This document shows positions 53,746 to 60,384 of a stretch of DNA of 64,000 bases, piece by piece. How positions within the stretch are numbered: position 1 is the first letter of the stretch; the number at the start of each line of letters is the position of its first letter. A model generated the notes under the pieces. That model searched no databases. It was given only the letters and a program-made list of their open reading frames with translations, and was not told the DNA's origin. Source of the stretch: Darksidea phi. Taxonomy: Eukaryota > Ascomycota > Dothideomycetes > Pleosporales > Lentitheciaceae. Where the stretch lies: positions 1-64,000 of the forward strand of contig JASJFT010000062.1 in assembly GCA_030770425.1 (NCBI GenBank), read 5' to 3'. The translations under genes were made by a program, and so were the position numbers.

Positions 53746-54244
53746 ACGTAGTGTAAGCTTTTTTGCACAAATACAAAGGCCAAGTCTTCCGTCTTCTTCG
53801 AAGTGAATTACGCTGGTCAGGAAACACGTCTAAATACAATCGGTCACTTTCCTGTATATCATATCATGCATTTATTCTGCAGCGCATGTATGATTCTGAC
53901 GGTTGAGCGTATCTAAAGCGATGGTGGCATTGATTGCCGCACTATAGAAGCTGCGCTGTTTTGGGACATGCGACGTAGGTGGCATGGCAACAAACGCTTG
54001 CCCATAAGATGATTACCACTCTCCACTCCTAAGAAAGTGAGCGAGGTCCGTGCGATTGCTCCTTCCTCTGGACATCGATGTCTGCAGTCACTAGGCCTAC
54101 ACGTGATCACGCGTATCTGCCAGCCTTACACAACCAGCTCAGCCTCCGCCACTTCTGCCCCACTAACTCATCACCCCTCCATTACTCTCCGTTACTTTCA
54201 ATTTTAACTCTCAACTACCTTCGTCGAAACACATTCCGCACAGA

Positions 54245-57200
54245 ATGGCGAGGTACGTCGTGCAAGTAGTCGTACCCGACGGCCGCACGTTTCGTCTTCT
54301 TCTCATCCTTTCGCCGGACCAGCTGTGCTCAGCCTTGCGGGACAAAGTTGAGAGCCGTCTATCTGCCCTCAATCTGGGTCTCACCTCATCAGATACGGAT
54401 ATCACCCTCCATCTGGACTCTGCGGATGGTCCTATACTTGATCCTGAGGACCTGCTCTCTGACGTCCTCCCTGACACTAAGGACGTAGTGTACGCCATTA
54501 TTGGTGGCGGAGTTGCTCCAGCGGGCCCTGCCACGCAGAAAGATTTGGTAACGTCTAATCAACAAGCCAGCCAGGCGGTCACCGGAAAGGCGGTTCGTGT
54601 CCGCGTCATTACACCAGAACTGGCCCGCTCTCAGCCGAATGTCAGTGCTATACCACTACTTCCAGAGAACGCAGTTACTTTCAAGAGCACACTCAACGAT
54701 CTCCAGGTCCAGGTGAAACGATATCTCGCCCTTGCTGTCGATGATGGAGAAGCCCATGAGGAGCTTCAAGATCTCCGCTGCAACTGCAGCTTTGCGCGCC
54801 AGATCGATGAGCATACAGCCCTTAGTGAGCATGCAATAGGAAATTCTGGGGCTCTCCACAATCTTGTCGTAGTCTATGGCGACAACCAGGCGGTGTGCCT
54901 TCCGGTCACTGAACCCACTCGGGCCGGCCTAAACGAGGCCTTGCACATACATCTGCCGACTGAGGCCGTGGGAAAAAAATTGTCATTTCTTGGGGGCATT
55001 CGGGACTTGCAAGCGGAAGGTAATGAAAATACGCGCTACCTGAAGCTCCCCGTCGTTGCTATGTGCTCCCTACAACGTCACCGCAATAGACTAGACAAAC
55101 AAGAGTCGGAATCTTCACCTCGCCAGTGGACTGTGCTGGACATGCATACGTCGGAAATGCCGATACACATCACTGCTCACAACCGTGATAAGACAATTGC
55201 AGCTATTGGTCTTGAGGACTGTATGGTGAATGGGGTACTTAACATCTATGCAGTCAAACGAACGACGTCAGAATGTATGCAGAACGTTCGGTCTGTTTCA
55301 CAAGGCAAAGATGCTATCTACCGACAAGATCTCGCTTGGTCACATCCTTTTGGGTATTCGGAGCGAGGTTTGGCCAACTTCCTATGCTCTCTCCGGATGT
55401 TCGCAAGCCTCACTCATACTAAGAACATGGAAGAATCTGAGCAGGACGCCATTCTCCACCTCTTTATGCTGCTCACCAAATTCCCACCGGCTGTTCGAGC
55501 TGTACATGTACTCATGAGGGGAGAGACACCTCATGCAGCAGAGAGAGCTGCGATCGTGCAGTGTGTATATGAGGTTCTCAAATCTGTCGTTCCGCTTCGC
55601 ATTGTCAACTCAAGTTCCCAACGGTTGCTGGAAGGGTCTCGTCTGCTCTTCGGTCTCATCCTCGAGAAAGCAAAGCACTTGAAGATCTCTATGCACGATC
55701 AAGAGGGTCAATTGCCGTACATGGGCACCGCCAAAGTGCATGAGCTTCGCAATCTCATCACTATGGAGGCTGTCCTCGATCCAATACAGACTGCAACAGG
55801 CTTGGTGGATCGGGGATTTTTCAATGCATTCAAAGAAGAAGGATTGCTTCGGTGGACCAATGAAAGCACCTTAAGCAAGACCAACTCGCTCGACAGGAAG
55901 CTCCATCGCGCTTGTCTGTTATCCGGGGGTGTCAAATCTTGTGTTGTCGGCTTTGACATCGATGCTGTCCATAATAGTGGTCGATACGCCGATCGAGGAG
56001 ACGTCAATAAGGTGATTTCGAAGGCCGAGTTCTCAGACTTGCAGTACCTTGCGAACCTCTGTGGGCGAAATAAGCTTGGGGTTCTCCATCCGTCCGCCCT
56101 CCCATCCGCCGATCCACCGGTGTTGACTCTCGATCGCGTAGGCTTTCTTGCTATGTATGTGGGCCGACAAGCCTGTGGTGAAGCTGGCCGAGACATCAAT
56201 ATGTTCCGTCCCACTAGCAGTGTGGTTGAGGAGGCAGTTGATGTTTCGATCATTACGCAAGTACTGGTCCCCATCCTCGAACGACGTAACGCCGATGGTA
56301 CTGCAATCTTCGAAGCATTCGGCGACCACACTCGCCAGGTCAAAGATCCTGAGGAAATCGTTGTGCTGTGCGTTGATGCTAGCGCTAGTATGGACGATCG
56401 TTGCGGGTTCATCGATGTGGAAGAGAACGAAGATGTAGTTGAAAATGAAGACGATGACTACGACGAAGACGTGAGTGATGTGGAGGGCGAAAAAAGCAGT
56501 GGTTCGGAAGCTGAAGATCCCCAATTTGATCGGCCCGCGTTAGACGAGTTGAAGGAGTATCTGTCCTCTCATGAGTCCTTTGATGACTTCCTTGCCATCA
56601 CCCAGACTGGAACTGACGACTATCATCGACACAAGAACGCGGAAAAGGTTCTTACTATTCTTCGTGCCCTCGTCCAGCAGTGCATTAAGGATAAGACCAA
56701 AACTCTAGAGAATTATCGACGCCGAGGAACAAACTACTTCTACCGGCAGCAATCGAACGTAATAGAGCGAGACCTTGCAACACTCCGAAACCGCAATATT
56801 CGGTTGCTTCAATACAAGGATGCTTTGGTTGCATTCTTGCTCTATCGTGCGGAGAACCGCGTGCTTGATGAGCCACTCACCTGGACGGTTGGCCAAGACG
56901 TCCCCCAGAACTCAAACAAGTCTACTCTGCCGTCCCATTGTAGCCCCAAATTCGAGATTCCCGCAGAGTTCCTTTGTCCAATTTCCACAGAGCTAATGGA
57001 AGACCCAGTAATCACAACCGATGGGTTCACGTACGAGAGGCGAAATATTGAACGATGGTTTCAAACTCATGAGACATCCCCTTGCACGAACTTGGTCTTG
57101 GTGAGTCTCGACCTGCACCCGAATTACGCTCTGAAGCAATCGATATTCAGATGGGTTGACGGAGTCGACATCGTGTCGAAATATACTTCCAATGGCGGCA

Positions 57201-59142
57201 ACATGAATGTGTGCTTCAAGTCTCCTCTCAGTACACTTACCACTGTCCTACCTTCCTTAATCTCCATGGAAGACCTCTATCAGAAGGCATTCCGAATGAG
57301 CAAGGCACGATATCCGACGTTCATCCTAAACCATCGCAATACCGTTTTGATTCCATCCGAAGAGTTGGCAATGCCCTATGTCAATTCTGTGGATCCTATT
57401 GTCGTTACACCTGTTGACGCAGGGGCGCGACCAACAGGAGGTGGTGGAAATGATGATTTGTGCCTCGTCAAAGTCTATATTGGTTATGAAAACACTGTGC
57501 TCTCCTACTGGGAGCCCAAGACAACGACCAAGACACTGGCTTCGATCGTCTTCCGGTACTATCGTCATGCCTTTCGTCAGAAACCCTGGCAGGTCGTGAA
57601 CGAACCGTTTACCATATGGACAGGCATGACCTACACCGGTGACAACCATTACCGGGGGTACACGCGAGATCACTGGGAACTACTGTCCCGTTACTTCACT
57701 CGCGAACATGCCACTGGTAAACTTGTCAATGAGCCCGTCTACAACAAAGAAGACGACGATGAGCAGGATTCAATGTTCCATCATGGCTTGCAACCCCTTG
57801 TACTTAAGGTACAATTGAGTGGTACGCCTGCACGTCCTAACCATAAGACCCTGACCCGAATTGGGGTTCTTAAGCAGATGTTTGATGGATATGTTAACCG
57901 CTTGCTTGCCTATGGGTATCAGACGCACTTAGGACTTGTCACTTTCAGATCCACTGCGTCTCTGACTCAAGAGATTACCCACGCCATTGAGAACTTCCGC
58001 CATCAGCTCAACAACATCCGCGCCTCGGGTGATACAGCAATATGGGATGCCATCGCTCTCGCCCGCGACACGCTCTTGCAGTACGCCAACAAGTATCCGG
58101 AGGCCAAGTTGCGCATCATTTGTCTATCAGACGGAACTGATACAAATTCCAAACAGCAGGTCCACGATGTGGCGCTTGGTCTCATTCGCGATCGCGTTGT
58201 TGTAGATTCGTTCTGTCTGGGCGACGTCGATAACCAGGACCTCCAAACTCTTTCTTACCTTACTGGTGGTTACAAGTTCCAGCCAGATGAGATGGAGCAC
58301 GCCATGGCTATCTGTGAAATGGAGCCGGTTCTCTCGGGCCTCGAGCGTCCTGACGTTGTGCTCCCCAATTTGACGAAGCGGTTCCACTCTAATCCGATTC
58401 TTCACTTCGGGCGAGCCATGTCTAAGGTTCAAGTTGATGTGGTCACGAGAGACAATTTTCCGCAACGCAAAGAGCATCCTCTTCTCTCGGAGGCTTTCAT
58501 CGAGCTTGGGCACTTTGCCCGTGGCTCTAACATTGCGAATAGAAGTGACAGCAACTTGAGGTTAACACGCATTCACAATGAGATCCGCAATTCGGGAGCA
58601 AAGGTCCATCCGCACTACGACATATACATCTGCGAGTCGAACTTCTGCATGTGGAAGATCGTTATGCAGGGTAAGTCATCATGAACTGTTAACAAATTTT
58701 CAGTATACTGACATTTTGTCTAGGCCCACCCGGAAGTACCTACACGAACGCAACCTTCCTTCTCTACTTAGAGATGGGTGAAGACTATCCGACTTTCCCG
58801 CCCAAGTGCCGCTTCATGACTCCAATCTATCATCCCAACATTAACCGTCATGGCCGTATCTGTCACTCCATCTTCGATCGCAACTGGACTGTAGATACAA
58901 CTAGCAAAGACATCATCGATACCGTCTATTCGCTGTTGCTTGTGCCGGAGTTCAGCGATCCGATCAATACAGTGGTGACCCTCAACTTCCATTGGGACGA
59001 AGTCCAGTAAGAACCCCCGCTGCATCTTCCGGTAGTTCTATGCTAAAATTATATCACTAGGTTCAAAGAGGAAGCTCAGCGCCATATCGAGAAGCATGCC
59101 TCCAAAGACCGGACTCAGTGGAAGCGCGAGATCACTGCTTGA
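54245..59142 (+). CDS. vWA / U-box / ubiquitin-conjugating E2 multidomain protein
   Basis: Three exons, 54245-58670, 58724-59006 and 59061-59142, give 1,596 residues. The first exon alone is 4.4 kb with no stop. Visible parts: N-terminus to about 90 with a ubiquitin-like pattern of short strands; unassigned region to about 700; a vWA metal-site start VDASASM (D711, S713, S715); an acidic stretch; a U-box at about 905-980 (FLCPISTELMEDPVITTDGF, RRNIERWF); another unassigned region; the remaining vWA parts LGLVTF, SGDTAIWDA (T1264) and CLSDGTD (D1296); and an E2 domain from about 1440 with HPNI, GRICHSIF (C1522) and YPTFPPKC. U-boxes recruit E2s, so the protein probably ubiquitylates targets unaided. 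I know no characterised homologue; substrate and location are unknown. Confidence 0.9.
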
Positions 59143-59772
59143 GCGACAGCGTCAGAATTGCAACAGGTATGGAAATGGGGATGCGACACGGGGAGAACAT
59201 GAAAATTGAAGGGGTCTAGTGACCAGGCTCTCTAGATTGTTCATTTCACGTATTGAAATATGGATTCAATTTTTCGGTAGGGTATTACGAGTAGTAGCTA
59301 GCGAATGACAGAAACTATAGCAAAAGCTCACATGCCTCTTAGCACATGAATATATACCTCATTAGAGCCAATTATTTTCCTAGTACGTACGGTATAAATT
59401 CAGATTTCGCTCAACTTAGTCGTAGAGACTATGCAAGCTTTCTACATTATTTTCCTAGTTCGTAACGAATGGGAAAATGTCATTCAAGTCTTTGATAAGA
59501 GGTACCAAGAATCATACAAAATGACAGATTTGTAGGGTCACACAATACATAGGAATGGTATGACAGAACGCGAACAAAGGCTGGCCCGTATGAATGCTGT
59601 GGGTGAAAGCAGGCTCACGTGGTTTTGCGCTTATCGATAAGCGGGCGTTCGGCTCGGGATATTTTGAAGTGTCCAGATTGCAACTTGGACACTTCAACAC
59701 CACAATAATATACTCCGCCTTGTGCGAAGCCCACTACCATCCACTTACCTCCCACGATACTTACAATCCAAA
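59143..59772. other. Spacer between the E2 fusion gene and SEC72
   Basis: 630 AT-rich bases with 3' flank and promoter sequence. Near 59620-59700 the words AAGTGTCC and TTGGACACTT form a short imperfect palindrome upstream of SEC72. No gene seen. Confidence 0.5.
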
Positions 59773-60384
59773 ATGGAGTCTATCGACACTTTTACCGCTC
59801 TCCCGCTCGAGATAAACCCCACCACCAAAGCAGTTACCGCGAACCCCTCTAGCAACACGCTAGCTACCGAGCTCGACGCCCTTAACGCCCTACACAAAAA
59901 CCTCCTCAATGTCGGCACACCTACCGGTACACCACCGCCGCCCGTTCCCGTAAATCCTACGCGTTCCGCACAAATCGGCAAGCTACGCGAATCAGGCAAC
60001 GCCGAGTTCCGCAAAGGTAATCACGCACAAGCTGTCAAGCTCTATAGCCTCGCTATCGATATGGCACTCGGCCGGCCGCATTGGGAACCCTCAGGTCTTG
60101 TCCGCGAAGAGATCTCGGGCCTGTTGAGCAACAGGGCGCAGGCGAATATGGCACAGCAGAACTGGGCGGAAGGAGCGGTGGATGCGGAGGCGAGTGTAGA
60201 GATGAAGAAAGTGGGGAATGCGAAGGGTTGGTGGAGGAGGGGGACTTGCTTGCTGGAGATGGGCAGGTTGGAGGAGGCCGAGCTTTGGGTTAAGCAGGGT
60301 TTAGAGTTTGAGGCTACGGAGCAGGATCTTGTTCAGCTGAAGCAGGAGATTGAGAAGAGGAAGGCTGGGAAGGTGGCGCAGTAA
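59773..60384 (+). CDS. SEC72: ER translocation subunit Sec72 (TPR protein)
   Basis: Cytosolic TPR subunit of the Sec62/Sec63 post-translational translocon at the ER, where it receives Hsp70-bound precursors. A single exon of 203 residues. It starts MESIDTFTALPLEINPTTK, typical of fungal Sec72, followed by a Pro-rich spacer and TPR helices: LRESGNAEFRKGNHAQAVKLY, LLSNRAQANMAQQNWAEGAV, KGWWRRGTCLLEMGRLEEAE. The end is basic and coiled. Membrane segments and signal peptide are absent, as expected for a peripheral subunit. The length fits the family (about 190-210). Confidence 0.85.
   Translation: MESIDTFTALPLEINPTTKAVTANPSSNTLATELDALNALHKNLLNVGTPTGTPPPPVPVNPTRSAQIGKLRESGNAEFRKGNHAQAVKLYSLAIDMALGRPHWEPSGLVREEISGLLSNRAQANMAQQNWAEGAVDAEASVEMKKVGNAKGWWRRGTCLLEMGRLEEAELWVKQGLEFEATEQDLVQLKQEIEKRKAGKVAQ

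What the first reader, a model, noticed from the sequence alone, without database searches (positions are those of the whole stretch)
54245..59142. U-box E3 and E2 ubiquitin-conjugating enzyme in one polypeptide with a vWA domain
The sequence shows a U-box (FLCPISTELMEDPV..) and, 550 residues later, a complete E2 fold with HPNI, GRICHSIF and the downstream helices, spliced in frame across two introns. Established knowledge: U-boxes are E3 domains that bind a separate E2, and E2 catalysis needs the Cys seen here at 1522. Inference: the protein is a one-piece ubiquitylation machine, with vWA and unassigned regions for substrate or scaffold binding. I know of no characterised protein of this architecture.
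Basis: partly seen in the sequence, partly recalled or inferred. Interest (0 to 1): 0.87.

Follow-up and report, generated by a model that had tools for sequence, protein, structure and literature searches.

The report
Fungal one-chain ubiquitin E2 plus U-box
A fungal gene makes one long protein that carries both a ubiquitin-conjugating enzyme and a ubiquitin-ligase domain (a U-box), the latter nested inside a von Willebrand A domain; relatives in other fungi and in some other microbes share the same core but carry their ligase domain in different places or not at all.

Summary
Confirmed. One gene (54245-59142, +, two introns, 1596 codons) encodes a U-box (residues 905-971) and a complete E2 fold (1443-1578, Cys1522). 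Intron 1 lies inside the E2, so exon 1 alone joins the U-box to the E2 start. It is no one-off fusion: by my count 96 of 120 listed relatives carry both domains, across Ascomycota; one search adds Agaricomycetes. Many records are named "peptidylprolyl isomerase"; no such domain was found. New findings: the vWA is complete but split after its first strand by about 490 residues holding the U-box; ubiquitin-like folds are predicted at the N-terminus and in the insert; relatives outside Dikarya keep vWA plus the same E2 but have the U-box C-terminally, a RING, or no E3 domain found; some fungi also show an N-terminal RING-like motif. E2 catalytic residues are conserved (Cys 90 of 93), but the S-P-A motif needed by the CHIP U-box is absent (0 of 93), as in most other E2s compared here. 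So "E2 and E3 in one chain" stands; "the U-box works on its own E2" is unproven. A new variant of E2/E3 hybrids, undescribed in the papers searched.

The parts
54245..59142 (+). Whole gene, 3 exons, 1596 aa: ubiquitin-like folds - helical part - vWA split by a U-box-bearing insert - E2
   Evidence: 130 homologs
54245..54508 (+). N-terminal ubiquitin-like fold (residues 1-88)
54584..55270 (+). Probable further ubiquitin-like folds (residues about 114-342), tentative; holds Cys-Asn-Cys (179-181), downstream of which some relatives carry a RING-like motif
   Evidence: Foldseek match to linear tetra-ubiquitin over about 300 columns, E 1.9e-5, but TMq only 0.09; Cys-Asn-Cys listed as invariant. No sequence support
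55361..55675 (+). Conserved helical part (residues 373-477), function unassigned
   Evidence: AF2 model
55712..55864 (+). Degenerate second U-box-like stretch (residues about 490-540), tentative
   Evidence: hhalign against the family's own U-box: probability 61.5, E 7.8e-5 over 23 columns; four other parts 0.2-0.4; strand-strand-helix
56348..56395 (+). vWA, first strand and MIDAS D-x-S-x-S (residues 702-717)
56396..57856 (+). Insert in the vWA (residues 718-1204): acidic linker, helices, U-box, two stretches of ubiquitin-like strand/helix order
   Evidence: (ortholog model), mapped
56957..57157 (+). U-box (residues 905-971)
   Evidence: Pfam PF04564 4.7e-20; PDB U-boxes
57200..57823 (+). Two ubiquitin-like folds by strand/helix order (residues about 986-1056 and 1072-1193), tentative
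   Evidence: secondary structure only; sequence comparison gave no support
57857..58351 (+). vWA, remainder (residues 1205-1369), MIDAS Thr1264 and Asp1296
58556..59133 (+). E2 (UBC) fold, residues 1438-1594, interrupted by both introns
58861..58863 (+). Codon of the catalytic Cys1522
58671..58723 (+). Intron 1 (inside the E2)
59007..59060 (+). Intron 2 (inside the E2)

Best explanation
A multidomain ubiquitin (or ubiquitin-like) conjugating enzyme, a natural E2/E3 hybrid. Shown by sequence: an E2 with intact catalytic residues, a U-box whose usual E2-contact Ile and Pro positions are conserved, and a vWA with a complete metal site, all on one chain and kept together across many fungi. Inferred: E1 charges Cys1522; the vWA metal site and the N-terminal ubiquitin-like and helical parts hold the substrate or a partner complex; the U-box projects from the vWA loop right after D-x-S-x-S, so binding at the metal site could move or expose it; the U-box then promotes discharge of ubiquitin from an E2, either the built-in one (in the same chain or across a dimer) or a free one. 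The constant core of the family is vWA plus this E2; the E3 domain is an add-on that sits in different places in different lineages.
Against: No activity data. The U-box may not serve the built-in E2: S-P-A on loop 7 occurs in 0 of 93 aligned family members (rule from PMC2396629). Domain orientation could not be judged: no coordinates or error matrix were given, and pTM was 0.66. The model is of an ortholog (P0003, 59% identical), not of the window protein. Two of seven named Agaricomycetes (P0123, P0124) show no U-box by Pfam.
Confidence: 0.62

Rival explanations
1. Two separate activities on one scaffold: the U-box recruits a free canonical E2 (UbcH5/Ubc13 type), while the built-in E2 works without it, as E3-independent hybrid E2s do.
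For: The E2 lacks S-P-A (0 of 93), found necessary but not sufficient for CHIP (PMC2396629, passages). Asp at the Ala96 position in 88 of 93 is kept in the E2 signatures of P0137 and P0138, where Pfam found no E3 domain, so it is probably not an adaptation to the U-box. The U-box keeps the Ile and Pro that contact canonical E2s (contact role partly recalled).
Against: The E2 and an E3 domain are joined in distant lineages at different positions, which suggests a cis advantage. The rule comes from CHIP alone. Lack of exact S-P-A is common: only 1 of 7 other E2 fragments caught in this genome has it. On loop 4 a Phe stands one position from that of UbcH5 Phe62 in 58 of 100, so that loop is no clear evidence either way.
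Confidence: 0.35
2. The E2 is charged with a ubiquitin-like protein other than ubiquitin.
For: Unusual E2 signature C-H-S/A with Asp in loop 7, not seen in the 7 other E2 fragments of this genome that the pattern caught; predicted ubiquitin-like folds in the chain.
Against: Closest solved E2s by sequence are Ubc13/UBE2D types, which take ubiquitin (recalled).
Confidence: 0.1
3. The E2 domain is a catalytically dead scaffold.
For: 3 of 93 aligned sequences lack the Cys; relatives outside Dikarya have H-C-N or H-V-N instead of H-P-N.
Against: Cys, Asn of HPN and the Asp of the S-D-P turn (89 of 93) are conserved.
Confidence: 0.05
4. Artefact: two genes wrongly joined.
For: No RNA data here.
Against: Exon 1 alone holds the U-box and the E2 start; many separate records carry the same joined protein.
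Confidence: 0.02

Closest known systems
UBE2O and BIRC6 (E2/E3 hybrids)
   Same: An E2 domain in a large protein that also acts as E3 (recalled; UBE2O is called a hybrid E2/E3 in the start of the abstract of PMC12635394, search listing; Ube2O and BIRC6 named as larger multidomain E2s in PMC11354881, passages)
   Different: No BIR domain hit. Here a canonical E3 fold (U-box) is present, plus vWA and predicted ubiquitin-like folds. The same genome has two other large-frame E2s, L014 and L017, that look UBE2O/BIRC6-like by recalled motifs.
Fungal PARP clade 6A with C-terminal UBCc
   Same: Large fungal proteins ending in an E2 domain with Cys (PMC2964712, passages; PMC4245714, passages)
   Different: No PARP domain hit here
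vWA + U-box proteins: Monosiga Mb_UBOXa, a Chlamydomonas PUB
   Same: U-box and vWA in one protein (PMC3087547; PMC4378952; passages)
   Different: No E2 mentioned in the passages seen
RGLG plant ligases (vWA/copine + RING)
   Same: vWA joined to an E3 domain (recalled; PMC12647413 and PMC8169666 seen as search listings only)
   Different: RING not U-box, no E2 (recalled); no copine hit here
TFIIH subunit Ssl1/p44 and Rpn10 of the proteasome
   Different: Fold resemblance only; no U-box insert or E2 (recalled)

Membership tests
E2 ubiquitin-conjugating enzyme (UBC fold) | UBC fold | tested here: met
   Pfam 1.2e-29; 154 residues, rmsd 1.6 on an ortholog model
E2 ubiquitin-conjugating enzyme (UBC fold) | Catalytic Cys and HPN Asn | tested here: met
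   Cys1522 in 90 of 93, Asn1514 in 96 of 98
E2 ubiquitin-conjugating enzyme (UBC fold) | E1-dependent thioester | not testable with these tools
   needs biochemistry
U-box E3 | U-box domain | tested here: met
   Pfam 4.7e-20; best PDB match, a 'RING-type E3 ubiquitin transferase' 7c96, 5.3e-17, then U-box domain-containing protein 12
U-box E3 | Conserved E2-contact Ile and Pro | tested here: met
   Ile913 105 of 121, Pro946 119 of 121; that these match CHIP's contact Ile and Pro269 is my reading, the Pro role is in PMC2396629
U-box E3 | Ligase activity with an E2 | not testable with these tools
   needs biochemistry
Cognate U-box/E2 pair of CHIP type | S-P-A on E2 loop 7 | tested here: not met
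   T-V-D here; S-P-A in 0 of 93; rule in PMC2396629
vWA domain | Complete fold with MIDAS DxSxS...T...D | tested here: met
   the fold is split by the insert
UBE2O/BIRC6 hybrids | BIR domain (BIRC6) | tested here: not met
   not among the 8 Pfam families at E up to 1
UBE2O/BIRC6 hybrids | E3-independent conjugation | not testable with these tools
   needs biochemistry
Fungal PARP clade 6A | PARP catalytic domain | tested here: not met
   not among the 8 Pfam families at E up to 1
Peptidylprolyl isomerase (the name many records bear) | Cyclophilin, FKBP or parvulin domain | tested here: not met
   none among the 8 Pfam families at E up to 1

The most novel reading that the evidence does not exclude
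A eukaryotic family of self-contained conjugation machines: an ancient vWA-E2 core with its own E2 subtype, to which E3 domains have been fitted at three or more different positions (N-terminal RING, U-box inside the vWA, C-terminal U-box), with the vWA metal site gating the inserted U-box and the ubiquitin-like folds holding the acceptor or regulating it. The E2 and E3 act in cis through a contact surface unlike that of known U-box/E2 pairs.
Probability: 0.3. Interest if true: 0.85.

Novelty: new variant of a known kind. Interest (0 to 1): 0.66.

Why it matters
Ubiquitin E2s and RING/U-box E3s normally meet as separate proteins through weak contacts (recalled). A natural, widely conserved chain that holds both, with related lineages that placed the E3 domain elsewhere, is a ready-made test of what tethering buys (processivity, fixed linkage, no competition for E2s) and of whether a U-box can use an E2 that lacks the CHIP-type docking loop. 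It also corrects a wrong name carried by many public fungal records.

Tried and rejected
Rejected: separate genes (exon 1 alone joins U-box and E2 start); peptidylprolyl isomerase (no such domain); dead E2 (catalytic residues conserved). Tried without result: relatives of P0128 in viral contigs and of P0138 in phages: none. Sequence support for the inner ubiquitin-like folds: hhalign between the N-terminal fold and five other parts gave at most 2.4%, so these rest on predicted structure alone; the high scores n2/n3 and n3/n4 in that call come from overlapping stretches and mean nothing. NCBIfam gave only vWA-type matches far below cut-off for the window exon and P0003, and a weak rad18 match for P0128. 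VIA rows for the N-terminal model concern residues 1-89 almost only, so other parts were barely tested. My first RING pattern found none in 139 sequences; a relaxed, Rbx1-type pattern, written after seeing P0121 and P0136, found 13 of 138 proteins, with 0 of 2760 shuffles. Of the proteins with that pattern that I scanned with Pfam (P0094, P0120, P0121, P0123, P0124, P0136), only P0136 exceeds a RING cut-off; P0094, P0120 and P0121 match zf-rbx1 below cut-off; P0123 and P0124 show no RING match. The RING in fungi is thus likely, not certain. In one search the pattern printed 9 rows; one (L002) is not an E2 and one (L013) is the window gene, so 7 other E2 fragments were compared, not the 8 that my notebook entry says; several E2 loci broken by introns were not caught. 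For the tree I named 45 rows; 3 (P0095-P0097) dropped out because the E2 pattern failed on them; rooting was my choice and Aureococcus is on a long branch. The count of RING changes on that tree (6) is inflated by records that I take to be N-terminally incomplete (P0122, P0125, P0076). P0123 is fused to Sec5 and looks like a joined gene model; P0124 shows no U-box by Pfam; both speak against a uniform architecture. I had first read loop 4 as evidence against cis pairing; the recount shows a Phe one position off in 58 of 100, so I dropped that point.
Full report
WHAT IS THERE. The gene lies at 54245-59142 on the + strand. Exons 54245-58670, 58724-59006 and 59061-59142 give 1596 codons and a stop, with GT...AG introns of 53 and 54 bases. 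Pfam finds, above cut-off, UQ_con (1443-1578, 1.2e-29), U-box (905-971, 4.7e-20) and vWA (VWA_2 and VWA, from about 1217). The long exon-1 frame (54167-58684) contains the U-box and the first part of the E2, so no alternative gene boundary can separate them without breaking the E2 fold. Homologs align over both joins: of 100 spanning join 1, 5 have a gap within 8 residues; of 84 spanning join 2, none.

CONSERVATION. A search of about 5.8 billion proteins gave 130 relatives, 120 listed (only the 7990 candidates sharing most words were scored). By my count of that listing 119 of 120 carry U-box, 96 of 120 carry both U-box and UQ_con, and 95 of 120 carry vWA as well. Of the 24 without UQ_con, 23 bear only the source labels jgi, lgn, ena or tara (taken as metagenomic) and one (P0044) is from NCBI. 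Two of them, P0001 and P0002, stop aligning at residue 1476, which is where the window's intron 1 falls, as expected if a gene caller did not cross that intron. The named ones are Dothideomycetes, Leotiomycetes, Sordariomycetes, Eurotiomycetes (including Endocarpon and Chaetothyriales), Pezizomycetes and Orbiliomycetes, with Jaapia as one basidiomycete (names; classes recalled). A search from Jaapia gave 8 hits including itself, seven of them named Agaricomycetes (class recalled); five of the seven carry both U-box and UQ_con in that listing. The window protein is sister to Didymosphaeria (support 100/99) in a tree of 42 rows, so the window is probably from a pleosporalean fungus; its genome record has 51.35 million bases in 477 contigs.

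KEY RESIDUES. In an alignment of 121 sequences, the window protein and the 120 listed (counts are of sequences with a residue there): vWA metal site Asp711 120 of 121, Ser713 and Ser715 121 of 121, Thr1264 113 of 114, Asp1296 111 of 111. U-box Ile913 105 of 121, Pro946 119 of 121. E2 Asn1514 96 of 98, Cys1522 90 of 93; three have another residue at the Cys and 28 have a gap.

E3 DOMAINS ATTACH AT DIFFERENT PLACES. P0127, from an unnamed source, matches the fungal proteins but has order vWA-E2-U-box; of the 13 hits found from it I scanned P0127, P0128, P0129, P0131 and P0132 and all 5 have the U-box after the E2. P0136 (eukprot) has an N-terminal RING-H2 over cut-off (zf-rbx1 54.2 bits against 31) and no U-box match; P0137 (Aureococcus) and P0138 show no E3 domain. 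Of the Dikarya proteins scanned, the window, P0094, P0103, P0111, P0120, P0121, P0122 and P0125 have the U-box before the vWA match; of the other three scanned, P0124 shows no U-box, P0126 has U-box and E2 but no vWA match, and P0123 has neither U-box nor vWA match. An Rbx1-type RING pattern occurs in 13 of 138 proteins (0 of 2760 shuffles). Where the stretch was printed beside a C-x-C-x-x-A motif (P0094, P0120, P0121, P0123), the pattern lies downstream of it. That motif is found in the first 400 residues of 53 of 70 long proteins of P0001-P0119 plus the window. The simplest reading is an old N-terminal RING, kept in some Chaetothyriales, Kalaharituber and Agaricomycetes and lost in the window's lineage; of the six proteins with the pattern that I scanned, only P0136, not a fungal record, exceeds a Pfam RING cut-off.

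DOES THE U-BOX USE ITS OWN E2? A study of CHIP states that E2s lacking S-P-A on loop 7 are not cognate and that S-P-A is necessary but not sufficient (PMC2396629, abstract and passages). Here that loop reads T-V-D; S-P-A occurs in 0 of 93 family members and Asp at the third place in 88 of 93. Against making much of this: only 1 of 7 other E2 fragments caught in the same genome has exact S-P-A, though none of the 7 has the Asp. At loop 4 the window has Thr at the UbcH5 Phe62 position, but Phe follows at the next position here and in 58 of 100 (the equivalence is mine, from the alignments), so I draw nothing from it. The Asp is present in the E2 signatures of P0137 and P0138, which have no E3 domain found, so it looks like a property of this E2 type rather than of a U-box pair; Jaapia has Ser there. 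I therefore rate cis action as possible, not shown. Without coordinates I could not check which surfaces face each other.

LITERATURE. Ten searches were answered. None returned a paper that I could see describing U-box, vWA and E2 together; the library lacks most subscription journals, and I saw titles, abstract starts and passages only, so this is not proof of absence. Nearest in print: fungal PARPs with UBCc (PMC2964712, PMC4245714), vWA with U-box in Monosiga and Chlamydomonas (PMC3087547, PMC4378952), all read as passages only. The records' name "peptidylprolyl isomerase" probably comes from U-box cyclophilins, a real group in fungi (PMC1618848, passages); that cause is inference.

VERDICT. 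A real, conserved, apparently uncharacterised E2/E3 hybrid. New variant of a known kind (hybrid E2s exist), with an unusual nested architecture and an unusual E2 subtype. Paralogs in the same genome were not tested with the whole protein; a U-box search of the genome gave 3 places, this gene among them.

Noticed in passing
L017 (G000:C463:66432-66878) and L014 (G000:C23:39045-39467): Two other E2 domains of this genome lie in very long frames (1089 and 985 aa); by recalled motifs they look like UBE2O/BIRC6-type hybrids.
   Followed up: partly
listing (P0003 onwards): Many public records of this family are named peptidylprolyl isomerase although no isomerase domain was found in the window protein.
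   Followed up: partly
window 55712-55864: Possible decayed second U-box upstream of the vWA.
   Followed up: partly
window 54779-54787 (residues 179-181): Cys-Asn-Cys, listed as invariant in the alignment, in a protein without a detected RING; in some relatives a RING-like motif follows it. Why it is kept is unexplained.
   Followed up: partly
P0121, P0120, P0094: Fungal relatives that appear to carry an N-terminal RING-like motif (below Pfam cut-off) and the U-box as well as the E2, i.e. perhaps two E3 modules and one E2.
   Followed up: partly
window 59668-60384: Neighbouring + strand open frame of 238 aa whose sequence looks like a tetratricopeptide-repeat protein by eye.
   Followed up: no
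P0123 (Antrodiella, 2234 aa): The E2 part is followed by a whole Sec5 exocyst domain; probably two genes joined by the annotation.
   Followed up: no
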